Below, one piece after another: positions 28,625 to 53,185 of a stretch of 64,000 bases of DNA. This DNA comes from Dehalogenimonas formicexedens (GTDB lineage Bacteria > Chloroflexota > Dehalococcoidia > Dehalococcoidales > Dehalococcoidaceae): NCBI RefSeq assembly GCF_001953175.1, contig NZ_CP018258.1:62001-126000 (forward strand). The letters are read 5' to 3'. The notes under the pieces are model-generated. The model had not been told where the DNA came from, did no database searches, and was given only the letters and a program-made list of their open reading frames with translations. Each line of letters begins with the position of its first letter. Positions within the stretch are counted from its first letter, which is position 1. A program made the translations under genes and the position numbers.

Positions 28625-29635
28625 TTATCCGCCGGGGTGAGTGGGATAAACCTCCTGGAACAGCCAGGTGGACAGATACCGCTCCCCGGTATCGGGCAGG
28701 ACAACCACGATCAGTTTGCCCTTCATCTCCGGGCGTTTGGCTAATTCGACCGCCGCCCAGGCGGCCGCTCCGGAAGAGATGCCGGCCAGGATTCCCTCTT
28801 CCCGTGCCAGCCTCCGCGCCATGATGCCGGCGTTTTCATCGGACACCCGGATGATCTCATCGACCAGGTCGGTTCTCATAACCTGAGGCACGAAACCGGC
28901 GCCGATGCCCTGGATCTTGTGCGGACCGGGTTTGCCTCCGGAAAGTACCGGAGATGCGTCCGGTTCGACTGCAAATGCCTTAAAAGACGGCTTGCGTTTC
29001 TTCAATTCTTCGGCTACGCCGCTGATGGTGCCGCCGGTGCCGACCCCGGCCACCAGCGCATCGACCGCCCCGCCGGTGTCCCGCCAGATTTCATCAGCGG
29101 TGGTCAGGCGGTGGATCTCCGGGTTGGCCGGGTTCTTGAACTGCCCGGGCAAGAAATAGCCGGGGTGGGCGGCCTGGATCTCCTGGGCCCGCCGGATGGC
29201 GCCGGACATGCCCTCCGAACCGGGGGTGAGCACGATTTCGGCGCCGAGAATCGCCAAAAGCTGGCGGCGTTCCATGGAAAATGTCTCCGGCATGGTCAGG
29301 ATCAGCCGGTAGCCGCGCGCCGCGGCGGTAAAGGCCAGGGCGATGCCGGTGTTACCCGACGTCGGTTCGACGATGGTGTCGCCGGGTTTGAGCTTTCCCG
29401 AGGCCTCGGCATCGGTAATCACGGCGACACCGATGCGGTCCTTGACGCTGTGCAGGGGATTGAAAGATTCCAGCTTGGCCACCACCTGCGCCCCCGCCCC
29501 CGCGGTGACGCGGTTTAGCCTTACCAGCGGCGTGTTGCCGATGGTTTCGGTGATATCGCCGGCGATGCCGCGGGTGAGCGCCGGGAAGCTCCTGTTGCGG
29601 TAATTCACCTTTGGAATCTCAGTCACACTTGCCAT
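28625..29635 (-). CDS. cysK: Cysteine synthase (O-acetylserine sulfhydrylase)
   Basis: 336 residues from the ATG with AAAGGAG 6 bases upstream. A longer frame exists but its extra 40 residues look non-coding. The PLP lysine is in [10 protein letters not shown] near residue 62. PTSGNTGIA near 92 and [15 protein letters not shown] bind substrate and phosphate. It makes cysteine from O-acetylserine and sulfide. The Rrf2 regulator with an IscR/CymR-type Cys triad lies directly upstream on the same strand, and a sulfur-relay operon diverges from it. A slightly long N-terminus (about 20 residues) precedes the fold. Confidence 0.96.
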
Positions 29636-29764
29636 TTTGATCTCCTTTGGGGTTTTGTGTCCCGGTATTAGAGAAGCAGCCAGCACGGGCCAGGAGGTTG
29701 GGTAAAACCCTGACTCTTTCGGGTTTAATATTGCGCCTCCCGGTCCAAAAATCAAGATTGGGTA

Positions 29765-30208
29765 CTAGATATAGTACATGTCATCCTGGGGAGATGTCTT
29801 AGCCTTCTGCTTGGCTACCAGATCGGCTAGTGTCGTCTGATCCAGCACCGAAGTTATGGCCTTGCCCACGTCGCCCCAGATATCCCTGGTGGCGCAAAAC
29901 GGGGAACGGTCGCATTTGTCGGGGTTGTGGATGCAGTACACTGGCTCGATGGGGCCTTCCAGTAGGCTGACTACCTCGCTTAAACGGATGGACTCGGGAG
30001 GCTTGGCAAGTTTAAGACCGCCGTGAGAGCCACGGACAGACTGGATCAGCCTGGAATCGACAAGCGGCCCGACAAGCTGCTCGAGATAGGAAAGCGAGAT
30101 CTGTTGTCTGGCGGCGATGTCTTTTAAGGGAATGACATCCTCACCGTAATGTTGGGCAAGATCAAGCAGCGCCCTGGTGCCGTATCTGGCTTTGGTACTG
30201 AGTTTCAT
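29765..30208 (-). CDS. Rrf2 family transcriptional regulator
   Basis: 147 residues. An N-terminal winged helix (KARYGTRALLDLAQHYG, then ISLSYLEQLVGPL, then VRGSHGGLKLAK) carries the Rrf2 fold. Three cysteines (92, 99, 105 in YCIHNPDKCDRSPFC) match the IscR [2Fe-2S]-ligand spacing. CymR-type members instead sense cysteine status through CysK. Its position between cysK and a divergent sulfur operon makes both readings reasonable. The promoter overlaps the palindrome at 30264-30279, so autoregulation is likely. Confidence 0.9.
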   Translation of the reverse strand: MKLSTKARYGTRALLDLAQHYGEDVIPLKDIAARQQISLSYLEQLVGPLVDSRLIQSVRGSHGGLKLAKPPESIRLSEVVSLLEGPIEPVYCIHNPDKCDRSPFCATRDIWGDVGKAITSVLDQTTLADLVAKQKAKTSPQDDMYYI

Positions 30209-30230
30209 TTCAGGTCCTCAAAAGATAAAG

Positions 30231-30279
30231 TTGATTAAACAGGTCGACATAGTCTACAATCAGTTGACAAGGATGTCAA
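30231..30279. promoter_or_regulatory. Divergent promoters sharing one palindromic operator
   Basis: Plus strand: TTGATT (30231-30236), 18 bases, TACAAT (30255-30260), start near 30267. Minus strand (Rrf2 gene): TTGACA (30279-30274), 17 bases, TAGACT (30256-30251). The inverted repeat TTGACA-AGGA-TGTCAA (30264-30279) covers the -35 of the Rrf2 promoter and the start point of the plus promoter, an ideal place for one Rrf2 dimer to act on both. The binding itself is inferred. Confidence 0.6.
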
Positions 30280-30297
30280 ACACCTGGGAGGCACAAA

Positions 30298-30459
30298 ATG
30301 GAAAGGCTAAGAATTAGTACAATGACAACCAATATTTCCCAACCCCAAGATCGGCCGTATCGCAAATCCAGGCAGCCTGGGGGAGCCCGGGGGTTCGCGC
30401 CCGTGCGGTCCGATGTGACTTTGATTGCAGACTTAACTCCCGGAGGTTGTAAAATATGA
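30298..30459 (+). CDS. Possible 53-residue leader ORF upstream of tusA
   Basis: GGGAGG precedes the ATG by 5 bases. The product is basic, Pro/Gly-rich, without membrane segment, and ends LTPGGCKI, a Gly-Gly-Cys close to the C-terminus. Its TGA overlaps the next small ORF as ATGA. I do not recognise it. The overlapping arrangement suggests translation coupling to tusA; the alternative is an untranslated leader. Confidence 0.45.
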   Translation: MERLRISTMTTNISQPQDRPYRKSRQPGGARGFAPVRSDVTLIADLTPGGCKI

Positions 30460-30512
30460 AACAGAGGCCTTCGCCAGCCGCAGTATTCAGAACAGGGGGT
30501 CCAGATGGCTGA
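30456..30512 (+). CDS. Possible 18-residue ORF overlapping tusA
   Basis: ATG overlaps the preceding ORF (ATGA) and has CGGAGG nine bases upstream. The peptide MKQRPSPAAVFRTGGPDG ends at a TGA 5 bases inside tusA. Two successive overlaps make a coupling relay plausible. Confidence 0.35.
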   Translation: MKQRPSPAAVFRTGGPDG

Positions 30513-30726
30513 AATCAAGATCAATTGCCTTGGGGAAACTTGCCCGATCCCCCTGGTAGAGACCCGGAAAGCCATAAGAAAAGCCCTGCCCGGAGATATC
30601 ATCGAGATCACCGGCGACCACCCGGCTTCCAAAAAAGAAATCCCCATGGCGGTCCAGGAAATGGGGCTGGAACTGCTGGAGGTCAAGGGCGACGGGGGCA
30701 CCTGGACGATCAGGATCCGGCGATGA
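30505..30726 (+). CDS. tusA: TusA/SirA-like sulfurtransferase
   Basis: 73 residues, the normal TusA length. The persulfide-carrying Cys13 is in the family motif CPIP (ETCPIPLVETRKAI). GDIIEITGDHPASKKEIP is the second conserved strand-helix. TusA proteins carry sulfur as a cysteine persulfide between partners such as IscS, DsrE and rhodanese proteins. The following DsrE-type and NifS-type genes fit that role. GGGGG lies 5 bases before the ATG. Confidence 0.93.
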   Translation: MAEIKINCLGETCPIPLVETRKAIRKALPGDIIEITGDHPASKKEIPMAVQEMGLELLEVKGDGGTWTIRIRR

Positions 30727-30762
30727 CCGGGTCCACGCCAATTCCCTGCTAGGAGGTTAATG

Positions 30763-31182
30763 ATGGCCGATAAAATTACCATTGTGCTGCACAGCGGGGA
30801 TATGGATAAGGTGTACAGCGCCCTCATCATCGCCAACGGCGCCCTGTCCATGGGCATGGAAGCATCCATATTCTTTACCTTCTGGGGACTCCAGAGGCTA
30901 AAGAAGGGCGGCCTGGACAAGGGGCCGCTGTCCAAGATGCACATGCTGGGCCTGGGAAAATGGATGGTGAAAAACCGGATGAAAAAGGTCAATGTGGCCT
31001 CCCTCGACAGGATGCTCACCGATTTCAAGGAACTGGGCGGCAAAATCCTGGCCTGCGATATGACGATGGAGATCATGGGCATCAAGAAGGAGGACCTGAG
31101 GGAAGACCTGATCTCCGACTATTGCGCCGTGGGCACTTTTGTCCTGGAAGCCAAGAATTCGAAAGTCAGTTTATTTATTTAA
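30763..31182 (+). CDS. DsrE2-like sulfur-relay protein
   Basis: 139 residues. The DsrE/F fold opens with ITIVLHSGDMDKVYSALIIANGA, then a FFTFWGL strand typical of the DsrE2 branch. The candidate persulfide cysteine is Cys98 in GGKILACDMTMEIMGI, and a second Cys121 follows. DsrE2 proteins occur next to TusA in sulfur-relay operons. A hydrophobic segment typical of membrane-bound DsrE2 is weak. ATG at 30763 has AGGAGG six bases upstream; the ATG directly before it is too close. Confidence 0.88.
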   Translation: MADKITIVLHSGDMDKVYSALIIANGALSMGMEASIFFTFWGLQRLKKGGLDKGPLSKMHMLGLGKWMVKNRMKKVNVASLDRMLTDFKELGGKILACDMTMEIMGIKKEDLREDLISDYCAVGTFVLEAKNSKVSLFI

Positions 31183-31190
31183 GGCCTGAT

Positions 31191-32354
31191 ATGAACGATA
31201 AATCTGTTTATTTAGACAATGCCGCGGCGACCAGGCTCGACGAGCGGGTGCTCGAGGCGATGTCGCCGTATTTTTTCCAGACCTATGCCGTGGCGACGTC
31301 CGAATTCGCTTACAGCCAGGGAATAGAGGCAAAAGAAGCCCTTGACGGCGCGCGCGGGCGGCTGGCCGGCCTGCTGGGTGTCACTCCTGAGGAGTTCATC
31401 TTCACCTCGGGGGACACGGAGTCATCCAACATAGCGTTGAAAGGCGTCGCCAAGGCGCTTGGCAAGAGCAAGGGGCGCCACATCATCACCTCCAGGATCG
31501 AGGATTTCCCGGTCCTGCAGAGCGCCAAAGCGCTCGAAAAAGACGGTTTCTCGGTGACCTACCTCGGCGTCGACGGCGAAGGGTTCGTCGATCTCGATCA
31601 ATTGGAGGAAGCGATCACCGGTGAGACGATCCTGGTTTCGGTGCAGCATTCGAACCAGGAAATCGGCACCGTCCAGGACATCGAGGCGATATCCAAAATC
31701 TGCCGCAGCCGGAATACCCTGTTTCATTGCGACGCGACCCATTCCTTCAGGCGGCTGCCCATCGATCTGTCCAGGGTACCCATCGACCTGCTGACGGTGT
31801 CCGCCCATACCATCCACGGCCCCAAGGGCATCGGCGGGCTGGTGGTGCGCAAGGGCACCACCCTGGGAAAACTGATGGACGGCGGATTCCAGGAATTTGA
31901 CCGGCGACCCGGGTTGGAAAATATCCCCGGCGCCATCGGCTTTGCCCGGGCGGCCGAGTTGGTCGACGAGGCCGAAAACGACCGCCTGAGAGCCATGCGC
32001 GACCACGCCATTTGGCGCATCTTGAACGAGATCCCTTCGGTGACGCTGAACGGTTCACCGGTCGACCGTCTGCCGCAGAACGTAAACGTCAGCTTCCACT
32101 TCGTCGAAGGCGAGTCCATAACGCTGCACCTGGACATGCGCGGCTTTGCGGTGAGCACCGGGTCAGCCTGCTTCAGCCGGTCGCTCCAGGGCAGCCATGT
32201 CATTTACGGCATCGGCGGCGACCATGAGCGCGCCCACGGTTCCATCCGGTTGTCGCTGGGACGCTACAACACGCTCGAAGAGGTGGACGCCGCGGTGACC
32301 GCCCTGGCCGAGGTAACCAGGGAACTCCGGAAAATCAGCCCGTTGGGAAAGTAG
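31191..32354 (+). CDS. NifS/IscS-like class V aminotransferase lacking the PLP lysine
   Basis: 387 residues, aligning end to end with group I cysteine desulfurases (YLDNAAATRLDERVLEAM; final SIRLSLGRYNTLEEVDA). The Schiff-base lysine expected in SAHK is Thr207 (VSAHTIHGPKG). The PLP-stacking His is Asp105 (RIEDFPVL), the conserved NNE is NQE (155-157), and the PLP Gln is His184 (DATHSF). The sulfur-carrying Cys327 (TGSACFS), Asp181 and Arg353 remain. An intact iscS lies at 51295-52458. The frame is clean, so this is not decay. It probably cannot do PLP-lysine chemistry and may be a scaffold, a persulfide carrier or a regulator for its operon partners. Confidence 0.85.
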   Translation: MNDKSVYLDNAAATRLDERVLEAMSPYFFQTYAVATSEFAYSQGIEAKEALDGARGRLAGLLGVTPEEFIFTSGDTESSNIALKGVAKALGKSKGRHIITSRIEDFPVLQSAKALEKDGFSVTYLGVDGEGFVDLDQLEEAITGETILVSVQHSNQEIGTVQDIEAISKICRSRNTLFHCDATHSFRRLPIDLSRVPIDLLTVSAHTIHGPKGIGGLVVRKGTTLGKLMDGGFQEFDRRPGLENIPGAIGFARAAELVDEAENDRLRAMRDHAIWRILNEIPSVTLNGSPVDRLPQNVNVSFHFVEGESITLHLDMRGFAVSTGSACFSRSLQGSHVIYGIGGDHERAHGSIRLSLGRYNTLEEVDAAVTALAEVTRELRKISPLGK

Positions 32355-32363
32355 GAGAAAGAT

Positions 32364-33002
32364 ATGCCGAACCTGCCGTATACCGATAAAGTAATGGAGC
32401 ATTTCAAGCACCCGCGCAACGTGGGGCGGATTGAAAATCCCGACGGTAAAGCCACTGAGGGCAGCCCGGCCTGCGGCGACATGGTGTCGGTGTATATCAA
32501 GGTCGACGACCGGACGAAGAAACTCTCAGATATCAAATTCGAGTCCTATGGCTGCGCCTCCAACATCGCCACCGGATCGATCATCACCGAACTGGCCCGC
32601 GGCAAGACGCTGGAAGAGGCCAAAAACATCACCTGGCAGGAGGCCTCCGAAGCCCTGGGGGGTTTACCCAAGATCAAGTCCCACTGCTCGGTACTGGCGG
32701 TGGAGGGGCTCCGGTCGGCGATTCAGAATTACGAGGAAAGGTACGGCCTGATCACGGAAAGGGAACCGACCACGGTCGAGGGCATCCGGAAACGCCTGAA
32801 GAAGGTCATCAACCCGATTAGCGGCCTTGACGTGATGAGGACGAACCTGGTCAAGGACATCTCGCTAAACGAAGGGCGGGTGACCATCGATCTCGACCTG
32901 CCGCAGAACCACCAGTTCGCCCCGGCGATCCAGGATGAGATCAAAGAGAAAATCGAGCCGCTCTGGGATGTGAAAGAGGTAGTTATCAACTACACAGATT
33001 GA
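32364..33002 (+). CDS. IscU-type Fe-S scaffold fused to a DUF59/MIP18-like domain
   Basis: 212 residues. Residues 1-125 are an IscU/NifU-N domain: Cys37 (PACGD, with Asp39), Cys64 (SYGCAS) and His107-Cys108 (KSHCSV) form the cluster site. Residues 137-212 look like a DUF59/MIP18 (SufT, Mrp N-terminal) domain: IRKRLKKVINPISGLDVM, then GRVTIDLDLP and VKEVVINY. The usual Cys-Pro of DUF59 is replaced by NHQF. It should assemble and perhaps deliver Fe-S clusters. Genes upstream supply TusA, DsrE and NifS-like partners. Confidence 0.88.
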   Translation: MPNLPYTDKVMEHFKHPRNVGRIENPDGKATEGSPACGDMVSVYIKVDDRTKKLSDIKFESYGCASNIATGSIITELARGKTLEEAKNITWQEASEALGGLPKIKSHCSVLAVEGLRSAIQNYEERYGLITEREPTTVEGIRKRLKKVINPISGLDVMRTNLVKDISLNEGRVTIDLDLPQNHQFAPAIQDEIKEKIEPLWDVKEVVINYTD

Positions 33003-33189: not shown

Positions 33190-35160
33190 CTATTTCTGGA
33201 CGAAGGGCAGCACCTTTAACGTCGCCAGGGTGTCAAGGTCGTTGGCCTGGAGCCGCGACTGGGATAGTGTGTAAAGGACATTACCGATGTAGAGGCTGCG
33301 GGTGATCTCACCGGCGCCGCCGTAAAAATACTGGCCGCTCTTCTGGAAGGCATCGCTGGTATCGTAGTGGCTGATCTTGCCCTTTAAGGTGAAGCCGCCA
33401 TTCAAAGTCAGGTTGTAAACATAGGCGCCCTGGAAGACGTATTCACCCTGCTGGTTCTTAGGTTGACCGGGCTTCAGCTCCGCCACCGTTACGGGCAGCA
33501 CCAGCAGGCCGGATTCTTTATCGAAGAGCAGTGCCTTGTGGTCGGCAGCCGCCAGGCTCTCCGAGCCCCGGTCGCCGATAACTTCTTTGTAGACCTCTAT
33601 CGGATTGGCGACATCGGTCACATCGAAGAGCGCCAGCTTGACGCCCTGGATGGCGGTGTAATAGACGGCGTTTTCGGTATGGATCAGGTCGGCGTCGATG
33701 CTGGGGTCGACTTCCTTGCCGATGCCGATGAGGTGGGTCTCGTCGTAGGGCTGCAGGTAATCGCTGTAACCCGGGATCTTGAGTTTGCCGAGGATCTTCG
33801 GCGATGCCGGCTGGGACAGGTCGATGACGAAGAGCGGATCGACATGCAGGAAGGTCACCATGTAGGCCCGCTTGCCCATGAACCGGACGGCGTAGATGCT
33901 TTCGCCGGGGGCAACGTCCTCCAGCGCGCCGGCGGCCTTCATCGACGCGTCGAGCACGTAGATATTGTTGGTGGAGGTGTCGCGGTTGTTCACATAACCG
34001 CTGATGGTGGTGGCGATGCGGAAGTAGCCGTTGTATTCGTCCATGGCGAACTGGTTCAGGATATGTCCCTTTACCTTGCCAGTGGCGGCGAAGGCGGCGT
34101 TGCCACCTTTCAGGGTGAACTTGGTGATGACGGTGCTCTGAGTGTTATCGGAAACCGTCATGCCGATGTCGCTGTAAACCGGCCAGGAGGTCTGGGCGAC
34201 ATAAAGACTGTCGGTTGAGGCATAAACATTCTCGCCGCTGCCGACGACGACGGTCTTGCCAATCTCTTTATTAGCGTCGGCTATCGACATCGAGGCGATA
34301 GTGAGGAAGCTGGCCGCCTGGACGGGCGGGATATAGCCTATCTGGTTGTAGCCGGCGATGGGCTTCAAGTCACTGGATTTCGCGTCGCCGATAGTCTCCC
34401 GGTAGGAGGGGATGAGGTCGGCGGCGGTGGGTTTGGTCTGGGTGTACACGGGATAGGAATTAACGACGAAGTAGACATCTGAACCGATCTTGCGGGCGGT
34501 CAGGTAGGAACCCTCAATATCGACGCTCTTGAGCAGCTTGGGATTCGAGCGATCTTTAATGTCGTAGAGTTTGACCGATACTATGCCGGTCTGAACCGGG
34601 TAGGGCATTATCGAAATGCCGCCTTTAACATCTGCGGGCAGGATGGTCGGGTAGCCGGGATCGCCGCCGGTGGCGTAAGTAGCGCCGAAGACCACCATCC
34701 GGTCTCCGTCAATAAACAGTTCCTGAGGGGTAAATCCGGAGATGGTGATTTGTCCGACGATCTGGGCTGACTGCGCCGGGTAAGCCTGGGCCAGGTAGAT
34801 GGTGTTGCCGGATACCACGTAGATGTACTTGCCGTCGGTCTTAACAATGTCGGCTTCATCCACGCCGGCCACCTGGACATTGGTGCCGGAGTAGGCGATG
34901 TCACTGGCGGCATTGGCGGCGCCGGCCTGGGCGGCTTCAGGGGCCATTACGCCGGGCGGCACAATTCCCCCTTTGGTGTAATAGTTGCCGGAATAGCCGC
35001 GGGATTGGGCCTGGGTAAAGGCGGTAACGAGCGCCTCCTCCGAGGCGAAAGTAGGCAACCCGGAAGCCGGATCATTGGTTTCACCAGACCCGCAGCCGGG
35101 AATGGTCAACATGCCGGCAAAGGCCAGGAGACTTAAACCGAAAATGGCGATTTTTTTCAT
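33190..35160 (-). CDS. Beta-propeller domain lipoprotein
   Basis: 656 residues. A lipoprotein signal (KKIAIFGLSLLAFAGMLTIPGC) places the mature protein on the outer face with lipidated Cys23. Residues 90-650 match the secreted C-terminal beta-propeller family distantly related to WD-40 (PF09826-like): NVQVAGVDEADIVKTDGKYIYV is its signature, followed by repeated blades ending in IYVLDASM-type strands. Function of the family is unknown; it may bind proteins at the cell surface. Single gene with a terminator. Confidence 0.88.
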   Translation of the reverse strand: MKKIAIFGLSLLAFAGMLTIPGCGSGETNDPASGLPTFASEEALVTAFTQAQSRGYSGNYYTKGGIVPPGVMAPEAAQAGAANAASDIAYSGTNVQVAGVDEADIVKTDGKYIYVVSGNTIYLAQAYPAQSAQIVGQITISGFTPQELFIDGDRMVVFGATYATGGDPGYPTILPADVKGGISIMPYPVQTGIVSVKLYDIKDRSNPKLLKSVDIEGSYLTARKIGSDVYFVVNSYPVYTQTKPTAADLIPSYRETIGDAKSSDLKPIAGYNQIGYIPPVQAASFLTIASMSIADANKEIGKTVVVGSGENVYASTDSLYVAQTSWPVYSDIGMTVSDNTQSTVITKFTLKGGNAAFAATGKVKGHILNQFAMDEYNGYFRIATTISGYVNNRDTSTNNIYVLDASMKAAGALEDVAPGESIYAVRFMGKRAYMVTFLHVDPLFVIDLSQPASPKILGKLKIPGYSDYLQPYDETHLIGIGKEVDPSIDADLIHTENAVYYTAIQGVKLALFDVTDVANPIEVYKEVIGDRGSESLAAADHKALLFDKESGLLVLPVTVAELKPGQPKNQQGEYVFQGAYVYNLTLNGGFTLKGKISHYDTSDAFQKSGQYFYGGAGEITRSLYIGNVLYTLSQSRLQANDLDTLATLKVLPFVQK

Positions 35161-36205: not shown

Positions 36206-36495
36206 AAAAGGTTATCAGCCAGCCATTTTGGCAGGAAGATATCCGAGATCTGGCCGTTTTCGGCGCCGATGTTTTCAGCCATCGTCCGCAGCGGGCAGGT
36301 CCATTTGTTGAAAATGAGGACCAGGCCCTCGACGAGATGTGTCCCATAGGTTATCGCCAGTATCCATGTAAACGTCGCCGTCGCCGCGGCGTAGATGTTG
36401 TAGATGAAACAGGCGAACATCCACCAGAAAGCGACGCTGTGGAGGGTTTTGATGATAAAAATCTGCCTGGCGCGGGTCAGTGTATTAGAAACCAT
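36142..36495 (-). CDS. Small membrane protein (DUF2784-like)
   Basis: 117 residues with three hydrophobic segments (about 14-38, 44-62 and 94-115). A CPLRTMAENIGAENGQISDI loop follows the second segment, reminiscent of the Cys-Pro-Leu-Thr loop of DUF2784. Its ATG overlaps the end of the P-type ATPase gene by 11 bases, so the two are cotranslated; it may be an accessory subunit. Function unknown. Confidence 0.7.
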   Translation of the reverse strand: MVSNTLTRARQIFIIKTLHSVAFWWMFACFIYNIYAAATATFTWILAITYGTHLVEGLVLIFNKWTCPLRTMAENIGAENGQISDIFLPKWLADNLFQVGMGLFVVETVWLGLEWIG

Positions 36496-38902
36496 GTCTG
36501 CTGTCCGTTATGCGATAAGCGAGAAGCTTGACCCGGTCCTGAATCATCAATTGTAACCCGCAGTAAGCCCAAACAAAGCCGGCATCGGCCCAGCCCAACG
36601 GCGTCATCAGGAATCCGTAAACCGCGATCAAGGTTGCCAATATCTGGGTGCCGATAACTGCCAGCAGGAGGATTTTCGCCGGGCGGATCGACCAGAACGG
36701 TCCCCTGGTCCTGGCGGAGAATAGCATCAGGTGCCCGGCAATCGAGAATTTCAGGTACATCATTGTCATCAGGACGTCATTCGGGAGGTGAAGAACCTGG
36801 CGTCCCAACACGAAAATAAGAAAAGATGAAAGGACGCCGTATATTCCGAGTTGTGTCGCCACGCCCAGGACAGTCCTGAAGTTCCATCTCTCCGGTTTGT
36901 CCGACGGCCTGGTATTGTCGTAAGCGATGGTCAATATCGCCCCGTCATTAAGTATTGCCAGAAGCACGATCATGATCGGGGTAACCGGATAGATGCCGTA
37001 AACCAGGATAGCCAAGGTCAAAAACAGTAGAACCCGGATGGTTTCCGATATGCGGTATATGGCGTAGCTGAGCATCCGCTGGAAGGTCTTCCTGCTTTCC
37101 TTGATGGCATCGACGATCACCGAAAGCCCGGGATTCAGGAGCACGATCTCAGCCGCGGAACGTGCGGCATCGGTAGCCCCGGCCACGGCAATCCCGGCAT
37201 CCGCTTTCTTGAGCGCCGGGGCATCGTTGACGCCGTCGCCGGTCATCCCGACGATGTGTCCCTGGCGTTGAAGCATATCGACGATGCGGTACTTGTGTTC
37301 CGGGAACACCTGGGCGAAACCGTCGGCCTGTTCTATGGCGTTCATCAGCTTCCCGTTCTTGATAGAGCCGGTTTCCTCGAAAACGCTGGCATCGAAAATG
37401 TCGGTGCCCAGCCCAAGTTCCTTTGAAATCTCCTTTGCGATCGCCACCTGGTCGCCGGTAAGCATTTTCAGTTCGACGCCCATTTTTTGAGTCGCGGCAA
37501 CGGTTTCTTTGGAATCCACACGCAGAGGGTCGAAGAGTGGGATCAGACCTTCGAAATGCCAGGCGCCCGAGTTGTCGGTCCGAGCTACCCCCAGAGAACG
37601 GTACCCCTTAGCGGCGAAACCGTCGATGACCCCGGCGATATTTTCTGTTTGCGAAGCCAGGGAAGGGTCCAAGGCTATCACGATGTGAGGCGCCCCTTTG
37701 GTGACCTTAAAAGTTGATGAGCCCTGCTCGACCTGGGCTTCGGTGCGCTTGCTCACCGGGTCAAACGGGGTGAAATGGACGGTCTCGAAGTCTTTCAGTT
37801 CCTCCGGGCTGACGATGGCGCAAATGGCCTGGTCTATGGCGTCCCTGCTTTCCGTCCGGGAAGCCAGGGCGGCGTCGGCCATGATCTGCCGGGCGGAGAT
37901 GCCGGGGATGGCGAAAGGTTCTCCGGCGGTGAGGCTGGCCTGGGTAAGCGTGCCGGTCTTATCGGAGCAAAGGATATCGATGCCGGCGACCTCTTCCACG
38001 GCGTTGAGCCTGGTGACTATAGCCCGTTTTAACGCCAGGGTTTTGGCGCCGAGAGACAGGGTGACCGACATCACCGCGGGCATGGCAACCGGCACCGCGG
38101 CGATGGTGAGGACTACTACAAACCTCAGGACTTCCAGGAAAGACTGGTGGCGGGCGAGGGCGACGCTGACGAGGATAACGGCCAGCACCACGGCGATCAG
38201 TATCAGGTAGTCGGCCATTTTCAAAACGGCGCGCTGGAGGTGGCTCCTGGTGACGGTGTCCTGGACCAGGTTTACCGTTTTGCCGTAGAAGGTGTTTTTT
38301 CCGGTGCCGAAAATCAAGGCGTCGGCCTCGCCCCGCCTGATTATCGATCCCGAATAAACGGCGTCGCCGGGCTGGCGTTCAACCGGCAGAGATTCGCCGG
38401 TAAGTGCTGACTGATCAAGTTCTACAGGGTCCCCGTTTATAAGTTTGGCATCAGCGGGCACGATGTTGCCGAGGCTTAACCTGACGATATCTCCGGGTAC
38501 CAATTCCCGTGAGGCGACGGTTGCCCATTTGCCGTCACGCTTGACCAAAGCCTGGATTGCCAATTGTTTCTTCAAGGCGGCTACAGCGTCACCGGCCTGG
38601 TATTCTTCGTGGAAGCCCACTACCGCGTTTAGCAACAGAAGGGCGATGATGAGAATGAGATCAGGCCAGTGGTGCAGGACGGCCGACAGTGCCGCGGCAA
38701 TCATGATCATCAAGGGAATCGGCCCCCAAAAGTAGGACAGGAACCTGATTAAGGGACTAACCCGTTTTTCTAGGATTTCATTGAACCCGAATTTGGCGAG
38801 GCGCAGTTTTACCTCTGATTCGGCGAGCCCGTTCGTAGAGGTTTCAAGTTGCTTGATCGAATCTGCGACCGAGAGATTTTTAAAATCCGGATGAATGTCT
38901 AT
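36485..38902 (-). CDS. Plasma-membrane P-type H+-ATPase (P3A), apparent ATA start
   Basis: Proton-pumping P-type ATPase. TGES actuator loop, phosphorylation motif CSDKTGTLT (Asp near residue 313) and GMTGDGVNDAPAL are present. The first ATG (38713) would remove the N-terminal 63 residues, yet the frame upstream encodes the family N-terminus (HPDFKNLSVADSIKQLE, then SPLIRFLSYFWGPIP). The frame is open back to a TGA at 38926-38924 and has no ATG, GTG or TTG before TTG 38716. ATA GAC at 38902-38897, preceded by AAGG, matches the expected start and gives 805 residues, the normal size. AUA initiation, a point mutation or a sequence error are the options. Confidence 0.88.
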   Translation of the reverse strand: MDIHPDFKNLSVADSIKQLETSTNGLAESEVKLRLAKFGFNEILEKRVSPLIRFLSYFWGPIPLMIMIAAALSAVLHHWPDLILIIALLLLNAVVGFHEEYQAGDAVAALKKQLAIQALVKRDGKWATVASRELVPGDIVRLSLGNIVPADAKLINGDPVELDQSALTGESLPVERQPGDAVYSGSIIRRGEADALIFGTGKNTFYGKTVNLVQDTVTRSHLQRAVLKMADYLILIAVVLAVILVSVALARHQSFLEVLRFVVVLTIAAVPVAMPAVMSVTLSLGAKTLALKRAIVTRLNAVEEVAGIDILCSDKTGTLTQASLTAGEPFAIPGISARQIMADAALASRTESRDAIDQAICAIVSPEELKDFETVHFTPFDPVSKRTEAQVEQGSSTFKVTKGAPHIVIALDPSLASQTENIAGVIDGFAAKGYRSLGVARTDNSGAWHFEGLIPLFDPLRVDSKETVAATQKMGVELKMLTGDQVAIAKEISKELGLGTDIFDASVFEETGSIKNGKLMNAIEQADGFAQVFPEHKYRIVDMLQRQGHIVGMTGDGVNDAPALKKADAGIAVAGATDAARSAAEIVLLNPGLSVIVDAIKESRKTFQRMLSYAIYRISETIRVLLFLTLAILVYGIYPVTPIMIVLLAILNDGAILTIAYDNTRPSDKPERWNFRTVLGVATQLGIYGVLSSFLIFVLGRQVLHLPNDVLMTMMYLKFSIAGHLMLFSARTRGPFWSIRPAKILLLAVIGTQILATLIAVYGFLMTPLGWADAGFVWAYCGLQLMIQDRVKLLAYRITDSRHGF

Positions 38903-51294: not shown

Positions 51295-52458
51295 TTATTT
51301 TCTCGCCCACAGCGGGGACATGGCCCGCAACCGGGCAACGACTCCCGGAAGGACCTCCAACACCCGATCAATGTCATCGCCGGTGGTCCAACGCCCGAGA
51401 GACAGCCTCAGGGAGCCAAATGCCTGGTGCTGAGGCAGTCCCAGGGCAAGTAAGACGTGTGAAGGTGCGGTACTCGTCGAAGAACAAGCGGAGCCGGGAG
51501 AAGCCGAAATGCCTGCCAGGTCCAGATTGAGACAGACGCTCTCTCCTTCGACATAATCGAAGGAGAAGTTGGCATTATTCGGCAGGCGTTGTGTCGGGTG
51601 GCCGTTGAGGCGGGTTTCGGGGATAGTTGAAAGAACCCCGGCGATCAGCCGGTCACGCAGGGCTGACAGTCGCCCGGACTCGGAAGCCATGGTGAGTTGG
51701 GCCAGTTCAACGGCTTTGCCGAAGCCGACGATGCCGGGAACGTTTTCGGTTCCCGAACGCTTGCCGCGCTCCTGGCCTCCGCCCCACAGAATGGGCGAAA
51801 TCCTGGTGCCCTTCCGTATGTAAAGGGCGCCGATGCCTTTGGGACCGTACAATTTATGAGCGGAAACGCTGAGGAGATCGACACCGAGCGCCTCAACGTC
51901 GACGGGAATCCTGCCTGCCGCCTGCACCGCGTCGGAGTGGAGGTAGACACCTTTCTCACGGGTGATTTTAGAAATTTCCGCCAGATTTTGGATGGTGCCG
52001 ATCTCATTGTTGGCCAAGATTACCGAAACGACGGCGGTATCCGGCCGAACCGCTTTTTCGACTTCACCCGGATCAAGCATCCCGTTGGTATCGACCGGCA
52101 ATACTGTGACCGAGGCTCCGTTTTTCTCCAGGAAATGACAGGTTTCCAAAACAGCGTGGTGCTCAATCGCGGTGGTGATGACATGCCTTCCGCGGCAACC
52201 GTTGGCATTCAGGATGCCTGCGAGCGCCATGTTGTCGGCTTCGGTGCCGCCGCTCAGGAAAAGAATCTCGTCAGGGCGGGCGTTTATCAGCCTTGCCAGC
52301 GACCCACGGGCCTTTTCGACGGCCTGCCGGGCTTCCTGTCCCTCGGCGTAGATGGCGGACGGATTACCCGGAAAATCATGGAAATAGGGCAGCATTGCCT
52401 CAAGGACTTCCGGGGCGACCGGCGTGGTGGCGGCGTAGTCAAGGTAACTGCGTTTCAT
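51295..52458 (-). CDS. iscS: Cysteine desulfurase IscS/NifS
   Basis: 387 residues, with all catalytic residues in place: His100 (IEHHAVLE), NNE (150-152), Asp176 and Gln179 (HSDAVQAAG), PLP Lys202 (SAHKLYGPKG) and sulfur-carrying Cys325 (PGSACSS). It converts cysteine to alanine with a persulfide for Fe-S and tRNA sulfur. The operon has an Rrf2 regulator and a small zinc protein upstream. It contrasts with the lysine-less paralogue at 31191-32354. Confidence 0.96.
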   Translation of the reverse strand: MKRSYLDYAATTPVAPEVLEAMLPYFHDFPGNPSAIYAEGQEARQAVEKARGSLARLINARPDEILFLSGGTEADNMALAGILNANGCRGRHVITTAIEHHAVLETCHFLEKNGASVTVLPVDTNGMLDPGEVEKAVRPDTAVVSVILANNEIGTIQNLAEISKITREKGVYLHSDAVQAAGRIPVDVEALGVDLLSVSAHKLYGPKGIGALYIRKGTRISPILWGGGQERGKRSGTENVPGIVGFGKAVELAQLTMASESGRLSALRDRLIAGVLSTIPETRLNGHPTQRLPNNANFSFDYVEGESVCLNLDLAGISASPGSACSSTSTAPSHVLLALGLPQHQAFGSLRLSLGRWTTGDDIDRVLEVLPGVVARLRAMSPLWARK

Positions 52459-52509
52459 AGTTAAGAATTATACCAGAAGCGCCGGTTTGCCCCCCCGGCG
52501 GGCGATCAG

Positions 52510-52737
52510 TTAGAGTTCGTCGAACGAATTCAGAAAGATCTCCGGGATGGCTTCGGCGTTTTCGTTGACCCATCGCTGGAGGCATTCCAATGAACAAAAA
52601 CCGTAGCGTTTGATATCTTCCGGTCCGACCAGGTGGGAAACGATAAACCAGCCCTGAAGCGCCAGGCACGGCAACTCCGAGGAGTCTACTCCCTGGTTCC
52701 GGCCGCAGCCGTAGCAATGGCAGGTCTTATCGGTCAT
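52510..52737 (-). CDS. Small Cys-rich zinc-binding-like protein
   Basis: 75 residues from the ATG 4 bases after the Rrf2 stop. Two Cys clusters occur: CHCYGCGRNQG at the N-terminus and GFCSLECLQRW at the end, with ALQGWFIVSH between. They look like MYM/TRASH-type zinc sites. The gene sits between Rrf2 and iscS, so it may help in Fe-S assembly or sensing. No family recognised. Confidence 0.65.
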   Translation of the reverse strand: MTDKTCHCYGCGRNQGVDSSELPCLALQGWFIVSHLVGPEDIKRYGFCSLECLQRWVNENAEAIPEIFLNSFDEL

Positions 52738-52741
52738 CCGG

Positions 52742-53185
52742 TCAAATAACCTCTTCCGGAACTTCCGGCTGGCCGCTTTGCCGCCAGCGTTCAACCATGT
52801 CATTCAAGGTGATGGCATCAAGAATGTTGTCGGTGGCTTTTTTGATCTGCATCCAGACATCACGGGTTACGCAGTGCTCGCCCTTCCAGCAGACCCTGGG
52901 ATCGTCCACACATTCGGAAGGGGCTGTCGATCCCTCGGTGGCTTTTACGACCTCGGACAATCGGATTTCCGCCGGTTCCTTGGCCAGGACGAAGCCGCCG
53001 TTAGCGCCGCGAACGCTTCGGACCAGCCCGGCGATCCGAAGAGGGATAAACAACTGGGCGAGGTATTGTTCCGAAATCCGCCGCCGCATGGCAACATCCC
53101 GGATCAGGATTGGGCCTTCCCCGTAGTGAATCGCCAGGTCGAACATGGCTTCCATGGAATGCCGGCCGCGGGCTGAGAGTTTCAA
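52742..53185 (-). CDS. Rrf2 family regulator (IscR-like)
   Basis: 147 residues. Rrf2 winged helix (GRHSMEAMFDLAIHYG, RRISEQYLAQLFIPL, VRGANGGFVLAKE). Cys92, Cys99 and Cys105 (ECVDDPRVCWKGEHC) match the other Rrf2 protein of this window at identical positions and fit an IscR [2Fe-2S] site. The start is TTG with GGAGG 6 bases upstream. It heads the zinc-protein and iscS genes and probably regulates them. Confidence 0.92.
   Translation of the reverse strand: MKLSARGRHSMEAMFDLAIHYGEGPILIRDVAMRRRISEQYLAQLFIPLRIAGLVRSVRGANGGFVLAKEPAEIRLSEVVKATEGSTAPSECVDDPRVCWKGEHCVTRDVWMQIKKATDNILDAITLNDMVERWRQSGQPEVPEEVI

What the first reader, a model, noticed from the sequence alone, without database searches (positions are those of the whole stretch)
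30231..33002. Candidate undescribed sulfur-relay operon: leader ORFs, TusA, DsrE2, lysine-less NifS, IscU-DUF59
Seen: six close or overlapping plus-strand frames, diverging from an Rrf2 regulator and cysK. Known: TusA and DsrE2 carry persulfide sulfur, IscU builds Fe-S clusters and DUF59 proteins deliver them. Inference: sulfur could come from sulfide/CysK or a TusA relay rather than from desulfurase chemistry, feeding a dedicated scaffold. That would suit an organism with heavy Fe-S and corrinoid enzyme demand.
Basis: partly seen in the sequence, partly recalled or inferred. Interest (0 to 1): 0.75.

Follow-up and report, generated by a model that had tools for sequence, protein, structure and literature searches.

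The report
PLP-free IscS relay for iron-sulfur assembly
A four-gene cassette shared by many oxygen-avoiding bacteria and methane-making archaea pairs an iron-sulfur scaffold with a cysteine-desulfurase look-alike that has lost its catalytic residues but kept its sulfur-carrying cysteine, which suggests that iron-sulfur clusters can be built there without taking sulfur from cysteine.

Summary
The two 'leader ORFs' are not conserved and are rejected; the Rrf2/cysK adjacency is peculiar to this genome. The NifS-like protein (NifS*) belongs to one clade found in Chloroflexota, Bacillota, deltaproteobacterial lineages, Atribacterota, Methanosarcinaceae, Methanofastidiosa and other anaerobes. In 82 sequences IscS H104 is Asp, Q183 is His, and K206 is Thr (79) or Leu (3), while the persulfide cysteine is kept in all 81 that cover it. 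TusA Cys13, DsrE2 Cys99 and three IscU cysteines are invariant. All four genes are present in 43 of 48 loci with full flanks; in Methanosarcinaceae dsrE2 occurs in 53 of 55 genomes with NifS* and 0 of 25 without, even where the genes lie apart. Most likely this is a sulfur relay (TusA/DsrE2 to NifS* Cys327 to IscU) feeding Fe-S assembly without cysteine desulfuration; source and direction are inferred. Precedents: desulfurase-dead A. fulgidus IscS, and M. acetivorans IscS1/IscU1, noted but functionally untested and very probably this cassette. New variant of a known kind.

The parts
30505..30726 (+). tusA: sulfur carrier, CPxP motif, Cys13; R21 and R25 correspond to the arginines of E. coli TusA that dock on IscS
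   Evidence: PF01206 1.6e-22; Cys13 72/72, R21 73/73, R/K25 72/73 in the cassette family
30760..31182 (+). dsrE2: DsrE2-type sulfur carrier, single invariant Cys99
   Evidence: PF13686 1.5e-34; Cys99 73/73
31191..32354 (+). nifS*: IscS/NifS-fold pseudo-desulfurase. D105 (31503-31505), Q156, D181, H184 (31740-31742), H206, T207 (31809-31811) and H209 line the former PLP pocket; Cys327 (32169-32171) is the persulfide cysteine
32364..33002 (+). iscU:DUF59 fusion: Fe-S scaffold (Cys37, Asp39, Cys64, Cys108) plus C-terminal DUF59 domain (residues about 141-206); the only NifU_N protein of the genome
   Evidence: PF01592 6.3e-42 and PF01883 2.2e-12; cysteines 77/77; one NifU_N hit in the genome
30231..30260 (+). 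promoter-like site (TTGATT-18-TACAAT) overlapping the divergent Rrf2 promoter; weak, species-specific candidate for the cassette promoter
   Evidence: 3 found in the region, 1.8 expected by chance
29765..30208 (-). Rrf2-family regulator (CymR/IscR-like, below both cut-offs); neighbour, not part of the conserved cassette
   Evidence: PF02082 6.9e-39; CymR 137 of 195 bits, IscR 114.7 of 207.55 bits; absent beside the cassette in G004
28625..29755 (-). cysK, cysteine synthase A; neighbour, not part of the conserved cassette
   Evidence: TIGR01139 459.9 bits, cut-off 350.95; absent beside the cassette in G004

Best explanation
The cassette is a cysteine-desulfurase-independent branch of Fe-S cluster assembly. 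Sulfane sulfur, made from sulfide or handed over by another carrier, is bound on TusA Cys13 and/or DsrE2 Cys99 and passed to Cys327 on the mobile loop of NifS*. NifS* no longer uses PLP or cleaves cysteine; it is a docked persulfide carrier and assembly platform. It delivers sulfur into IscU (Cys37, Cys64, Cys108, Asp39), and the fused DUF59 domain helps to hand the cluster on. Shown here: gene content, co-inheritance, loss of the PLP residues, invariance of every carrier cysteine, conservation of the surfaces that dock IscU and (in part) TusA in E. coli, purifying selection. Inferred: no PLP and no activity in vitro, direction of flow, sulfur source, order of TusA and DsrE2, and that the product is an Fe-S cluster.
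For: H104>D 82/82, Q183>H 82/82, K206>T/L 82/82, T243 mostly hydrophobic, while Cys327 is kept 81/81; E. coli H104Q, Q183E and K206A have no desulfurase activity (PMC9978102). TusA C13 72/72, DsrE2 C99 73/73, IscU C37/C64/C108 77/77. All four genes in 43 of 48 complete loci, in two gene orders. DsrE2 in 53/55 NifS* genomes and 0/25 others of Methanosarcinaceae, 10 of the 53 with the genes apart. IscU-contact segments conserved; TusA-contact acid at position 49 in 78/81 NifS* but 5/25 ordinary relatives, with matching TusA arginines (contacts from PMC2854127). IscS fold kept, Z about 50. In this genome the ordinary nifS-iscU pair found in most of the genus is gone and the fusion is the only IscU. 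Two MAGs with the cassette show no recognisable cysteine desulfurase.
Against: No biochemistry on any member. 14 of 18 cassette genomes also have an ordinary lysine-bearing NifS/IscS, so sulfur could still come from cysteine by way of TusA. DsrE2 is missing in a few NifS* genomes. M. [quoted passage not shown] M. acetivorans IscSU1 has not been consistently detected in the proteome (PMC7585200). W45 of IscS, which stacks on TusA, is Ile/Leu/Val in NifS*.
Confidence: 0.6

Rival explanations
1. NifS* is a structural partner only, as proposed for A. fulgidus IscS: its loop cysteine is a ligand of a [2Fe-2S] cluster on IscU while free sulfide enters directly; TusA and DsrE2 buffer or traffic sulfide without handing it to NifS*.
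For: A. fulgidus IscS lacks the lysine, has no desulfurase activity and gives a cysteine ligand to the cluster in the IscS-IscU structure (cited in PMC7585200; sequences). Cys327 and the IscU-docking surface are conserved.
Against: A. fulgidus IscS keeps H104 and N155 and lies outside the clade. The almost obligatory company of TusA and DsrE2, and the retained acid at position 49, argue for sulfur transfer.
Confidence: 0.22
2. The relay runs the other way or to another product: an ordinary desulfurase or sulfide loads the cassette, and TusA/DsrE2 take sulfur from it for tRNA thiolation or a thiolated cofactor.
For: E. coli TusA works in tRNA thiolation downstream of IscS (PMC2854127); most cassette genomes have an ordinary desulfurase.
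Against: IscU:DUF59 is part of the cassette with all cluster residues, and no tRNA- or cofactor-thiolation gene recurs nearby.
Confidence: 0.1
3. NifS* is still a PLP enzyme with a different reaction that does not need the lysine, with His184 or His206/His209 as the base.
For: The replaced pocket residues are nearly invariant; D180 and R354 of IscS are kept; lysine-free PLP enzymes exist (general knowledge).
Against: The ring-stacking His, the O3' Gln, the Schiff-base Lys and the phosphate-side Thr243 are all replaced.
Confidence: 0.06
4. A decaying pseudogene or a chance neighbourhood.
For: Loss of catalytic residues.
Against: dN/dS 0.02-0.07; the replacements are invariant across phyla; one clade.
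Confidence: 0.01

Closest known systems
Methanosarcina acetivorans IscS1/IscU1 (MA0808/MA0807), PMC7585200
   Same: IscS1 lacks the lysine and has the loop STGSACFS; IscU1 is 24.2 kDa with C45, D47, C72, C116, the same spacing (27, 44) as the cassette fusion, and LPPIK as in cassette loci from Methanosarcinaceae genomes; clustered with genes of unknown function.
   Different: Very probably a member of this cassette. The inference rests on published residue positions; its sequence was not held here. No function was tested, and TusA and DsrE2 were not named.
Archaeoglobus fulgidus IscS-IscU (PDB 4EB5, 4EB7, 4HVK)
   Same: IscS fold, lysine lost, no desulfurase activity, cysteine kept, works with IscU.
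   Different: K206 is Asp and Q183 is Ala, but H104 and N155 are kept; branches next to but outside the clade.
MIS, the minimal ISC system (PMC12192291)
   Same: Minimal pair of an IscS-type and an IscU-type protein in anaerobes.
   Different: MIS is defined with a cysteine desulfurase and no carrier; here the desulfurase residues are gone and TusA, DsrE2 and DUF59 are added.
SMS, the minimal SUF system (SmsBC), sulfide-fed
   Same: Fe-S assembly without a cysteine desulfurase, sulfide as source (PMC12192291).
   Different: Unrelated scaffold (SufB/C). The window's genome has one SufB/D-type gene as well.
dsrE-tusA clusters of sulfur oxidisers (Metallosphaera cuprina DsrE3A-DsrE2B-TusA)
   Same: TusA and DsrE2 side by side; the mutated DsrE2B cysteine is Cys99 there, and the single invariant cysteine is Cys99 here.
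   Different: Linked to Hdr sulfur oxidation, with no IscS or IscU; DsrE2B was inert in vitro (PMC4175335).

Membership tests
Cysteine desulfurase (NifS/IscS, EC 2.8.1.7) | Lysine that forms the PLP Schiff base | tested here: not met
   Thr207 in the window; T 79, L 3 of 82
Cysteine desulfurase (NifS/IscS, EC 2.8.1.7) | PLP-contacting His104 and Gln183 | tested here: not met
   Asp and His in 82 of 82
Cysteine desulfurase (NifS/IscS, EC 2.8.1.7) | Catalytic persulfide cysteine on a mobile loop | tested here: met
   Cys327 in STGSACFS, 81 of 81; loop of low confidence in the model
Cysteine desulfurase (NifS/IscS, EC 2.8.1.7) | IscS fold | tested here: met
   Z 50.1, rmsd 1.8 over 371 residues to 3lvm
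Cysteine desulfurase (NifS/IscS, EC 2.8.1.7) | Score above NCBIfam curated cut-offs | tested here: not met
   TIGR03402 424.6 of 530.75; TIGR02006 361.3 of 643.2
Cysteine desulfurase (NifS/IscS, EC 2.8.1.7) | Release of sulfur from cysteine | not testable with these tools
   needs purified protein
Desulfurase-dead IscS of the A. fulgidus type | Lysine lost, cysteine kept, IscU partner | tested here: met
Desulfurase-dead IscS of the A. fulgidus type | Same lineage as A. fulgidus IscS | tested here: inconclusive
   A. fulgidus IscS branches just outside the clade, on a long branch
IscU scaffold | Three cluster cysteines and the conserved Asp | tested here: met
   C37, D39, C64, C108 conserved in the cassette family
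IscU scaffold | Holds and transfers an Fe-S cluster | not testable with these tools
   needs purified protein
TusA | CPxP motif and TusA domain | tested here: met
   PF01206 79.5 bits, cut-off 28.6; C13, P14, P16 conserved
DsrE2 | DsrE2 domain | tested here: met
   PF13686 119.7 bits, cut-off 25
DsrE2 | NCBIfam equivalog of sulfur carrier DsrE2 | tested here: not met
   NF047629 64.2 of 210 bits: a different subfamily
MIS minimal ISC system | Pair of a functional cysteine desulfurase and a scaffold, no carrier | tested here: not met
   Scaffold present; desulfurase residues lost and TusA/DsrE2 present
CymR or IscR regulator (neighbour gene) | Score above curated cut-off | tested here: not met
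   CymR 137 of 195, IscR 114.7 of 207.55 bits; Rrf2 superfamily cut-off is met

The most novel reading that the evidence does not exclude
NifS* is a neofunctionalised, PLP-free IscS whose former cofactor pocket (D105, Q156, D181, H184, H206, T207, H209, R353, nearly invariant across phyla) binds another ligand such as ferrous iron or sulfide, so that the cassette is a separate Fe-S assembly system fed by inorganic sulfur, spread by horizontal transfer among anaerobic bacteria and archaea, and the unidentified sulfide-dependent system of Methanosarcina.
Probability: 0.3. Interest if true: 0.88.

Novelty: new variant of a known kind. Interest (0 to 1): 0.73.

Why it matters
How anaerobes put sulfide into Fe-S clusters is an open question. 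In M. acetivorans complete deletion of sufBC gave no growth phenotype and no sulfide-specific defect (PMC10500019), and loss of iscSU2 shows only with cysteine as sulfur source (PMC7585200). The isc1 locus is very probably this cassette, so the question becomes directly testable in a genetically tractable archaeon. The family also shows a PLP enzyme whose cofactor site has been rebuilt in a coordinated way while its persulfide loop and partner surfaces stayed under selection. Automated annotation as 'cysteine desulfurase' is likely to be wrong for the whole clade.

Tried and rejected
Leader ORFs as regulators: not conserved in the sister species, no family match, no credible Rfam match. Rrf2/cysK as part of the system: direct adjacency seen only in this genome; in two Dehalococcoidales MAGs (L047, L053) they lie near, together with an ordinary iscU and a lysine-bearing nifS. 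Further cassette genes: clustering of 569 neighbouring ORFs gave only generic families (kinases, ABC transporters) and lineage-bound ones. 'No desulfurase at all' as a general rule: false, 14 of 18 genomes have an ordinary NifS/IscS, and two of the other four have proteins that read as SufS-type (GHK and RTGHHC motifs, my reading, not a family scan). Literature searches for a tusA-dsrE-iscS-iscU cluster gave nothing relevant; only open-licence papers were searched. The structure tool gave no coordinates, so pocket distances were not measured. Ascertainment: the survey patterns covered window residues 150-157 and 177-184, so N155>Q and Q183>H are partly selected for; D105, T207, H209 and position 242 are not.
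Full report
WHAT IS THERE. The window lies in a single-contig genome of 2,092,789 bases; the size fits Dehalogenimonas formicexedens (from memory, not tested). On the + strand four genes follow each other with gaps of 33, 8 and 9 bp: tusA, dsrE2, a NifS/IscS homologue, and iscU fused to DUF59. The NifS-like protein, called NifS* here, has Thr207 in 'SAHTIHGPKG' where the PLP lysine stands in the genome's two other NifS proteins ('SAHKLYGPKG' at window 51295-52458 and 'SAHKFYGPKG' at C1:1876220).

SPREAD. Only 5 of 61 close relatives, 2 of 8 genomes of the genus and 7 of 400 Chloroflexota genomes have NifS*. A search of one genome per species with a segment of the protein found 183 relatives, of which the best 80 were kept. 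By NCBI phylum they are Chloroflexota (34), Bacillota (17, among them Acetobacterium, Pelotomaculum, Desulfosporosinus), Methanobacteriota (13: Methanosarcinaceae, Methanobacteriaceae, Methanofastidiosa), Myxococcota, Thermodesulfobacteriota, Atribacterota and others. In Methanosarcinaceae 55 of 80 genomes have it. The named hosts are anaerobes, as far as I know them. The patchy spread and the mixing of phyla in the tree suggest horizontal transfer; this was not tested formally.

CO-INHERITANCE. Among loci with at least 1.5 kb upstream and 3.5 kb downstream, 43 of 48 have all four genes: 39 in the order tusA-dsrE2-nifS*-iscU:DUF59 and 4 as nifS*-iscU:DUF59-tusA-dsrE2; two lack dsrE2 and three lack other genes. 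In Methanosarcinaceae dsrE2 occurs in 53 of the 55 genomes with nifS* and in none of the 25 without (Fisher p about 1e-18, not corrected for shared ancestry). In 10 of the 53 the two genes are far apart or on different contigs, so co-inheritance does not rest on linkage alone. In Chloroflexota the four high-scoring DsrE2 proteins are all in NifS* genomes, but three NifS* genomes lack DsrE2.

THE PROTEIN. In 82 members the E. coli IscS residues H104, Q183 and K206 are D, H and T (three L), N155 is Q (one H), and T243 is mostly L, M, I or V, whereas 25 ordinary comparison proteins keep H, Q, K, N and T. Positions 156 and 184 lay inside the search patterns and are partly selected for; positions 105, 207, 209 and 242 were not. 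Published E. coli variants H104Q, Q183E and K206A have no desulfurase activity (PMC9978102). The replacements are themselves almost invariant: D105, D181, H184, H209 and R353 in all 55 non-redundant members, T207 and Q156 in 54 and H206 in 53. A random set of seven positions is as conserved in 0.09% of draws, with the caveat just given. A pocket left to decay would not look like this. A second cysteine, C171, is invariant in this clade and usually Ala elsewhere. The persulfide cysteine is kept in 81 of 81. The clade is one side of a branch with SH-aLRT 100, also after removal of the motif columns. The AlphaFold model keeps the IscS fold (pLDDT 89; Z 51.1 to human NFS1, 50.1 to E. coli IscS, 48.9 to A. 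fulgidus IscS), with very low confidence only at 229-241 and in the cysteine loop 327-331.

DOCKING. Segments that contact IscU in E. coli IscS (helix alpha8, E347, C-terminal helix) are conserved in NifS* (contacts from PMC2854127). Of the acids that bind TusA, position 49 is Glu or Asp in 78 of 81 and position 52 in 70 of 81 NifS*, while position 49 is Glu in only 5 of 25 ordinary relatives; W45 is not kept. TusA has the matching R21 (73/73) and R/K25 (72/73). IscU Cys37, Cys64 and Cys108, DsrE2 Cys99 and TusA Cys13 are invariant.

GENOMIC CONTEXT. In the genus the ordinary locus is Rrf2, then usually three genes (in this genome's truncated copy the first two read as metY and metX), then cysK, lysine-bearing nifS and usually iscU. 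In the window's genome one copy of that locus breaks off inside metX, with a serine recombinase within about 3 kb (L182), and the copy beside the cassette has only Rrf2 and cysK. The only NifU_N protein left is the fusion, beside one SufB/D-type protein. In G004 the cassette sits at the same site, between clpC and the homologue of the gene at 33190, without Rrf2 or cysK. A promoter-like site on the + strand overlaps the Rrf2 promoter and may bring the cassette under Rrf2 control in this species only.

HOW IT PROBABLY WORKS. E. coli IscS passes persulfide from its loop cysteine to IscU and TusA at two different sites (PMC2854127). With the PLP site gone, the same surfaces can serve a relay in which sulfur arrives at NifS* from TusA or DsrE2 and leaves to IscU. 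The source is open: sulfide or polysulfide (anaerobic, often sulfidic hosts; two MAGs without any recognised cysteine desulfurase, though MAGs are incomplete), or a separate ordinary desulfurase acting through TusA (14 of 18 genomes have one). Against easy loading from sulfide, M. cuprina DsrE2B reacted with none of the compounds tested (PMC4175335).

KNOWN OR NEW. The loss of the lysine in an IscS with an IscU partner is known from A. fulgidus (cited in PMC7585200). M. acetivorans IscS1 was reported to lack the lysine, and its IscU1 has the residue spacing and size of the cassette fusion. So individual members have been seen. I found no description of the TusA-DsrE2-NifS*-IscU:DUF59 cassette as a unit, of its spread over bacteria and archaea, or of the coordinated rebuilding of the pocket; subscription papers were not searched. 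I file it as a new variant of a known kind.

Noticed in passing
window 51295-53185 (-): An ordinary lysine-bearing NifS (51295-52458) with a second Rrf2 gene (52742-53185) upstream; a possible cysteine-derived sulfur donor in the same genome.
   Followed up: partly
L182 354-7251 (G000:C1 about 434.4-441.3 kb): A second Rrf2-metY-metX locus breaks off inside metX, with a serine recombinase and a small integrase-like gene nearby, as if a mobile element had removed cysE-cysK-nifS-iscU.
   Followed up: partly
L040, L043, L060, L066, L080, L106, L109, just downstream of the cassette: A protein family that includes a heavy-metal (copper-type) P-type ATPase follows the cassette in 7 of 80 loci; a P-type-ATPase homologue is also encoded at window 36485-38713 (-).
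   Followed up: no
L051, L063, L093, L105, between nifS* and iscU: In four Dehalococcoidia loci one or two Asp/Glu/hydantoin-racemase-like genes are inserted between nifS* and iscU:DUF59.
   Followed up: no
L100 8753-13931: An Altiarchaeales contig has the cassette followed directly by a lysine-bearing nifS and a second iscU; this nifS branches next to the NifS* clade and may mark its origin.
   Followed up: partly
upstream of Rrf2 in L144, L145, L149, L150, L151 and window about 30222-30247: An operator-like inverted repeat (GTTGAT..ATCAAC) lies between the -10 region and the start of the Rrf2 gene in the genus, which suggests autoregulation.
   Followed up: no
L108 9548-10717: Desulfosporosinus sp. 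Tol-M has a solitary nifS* (loop STGSVCFN, cysteine kept) with no tusA, dsrE2 or iscU within about 9 kb.
   Followed up: no
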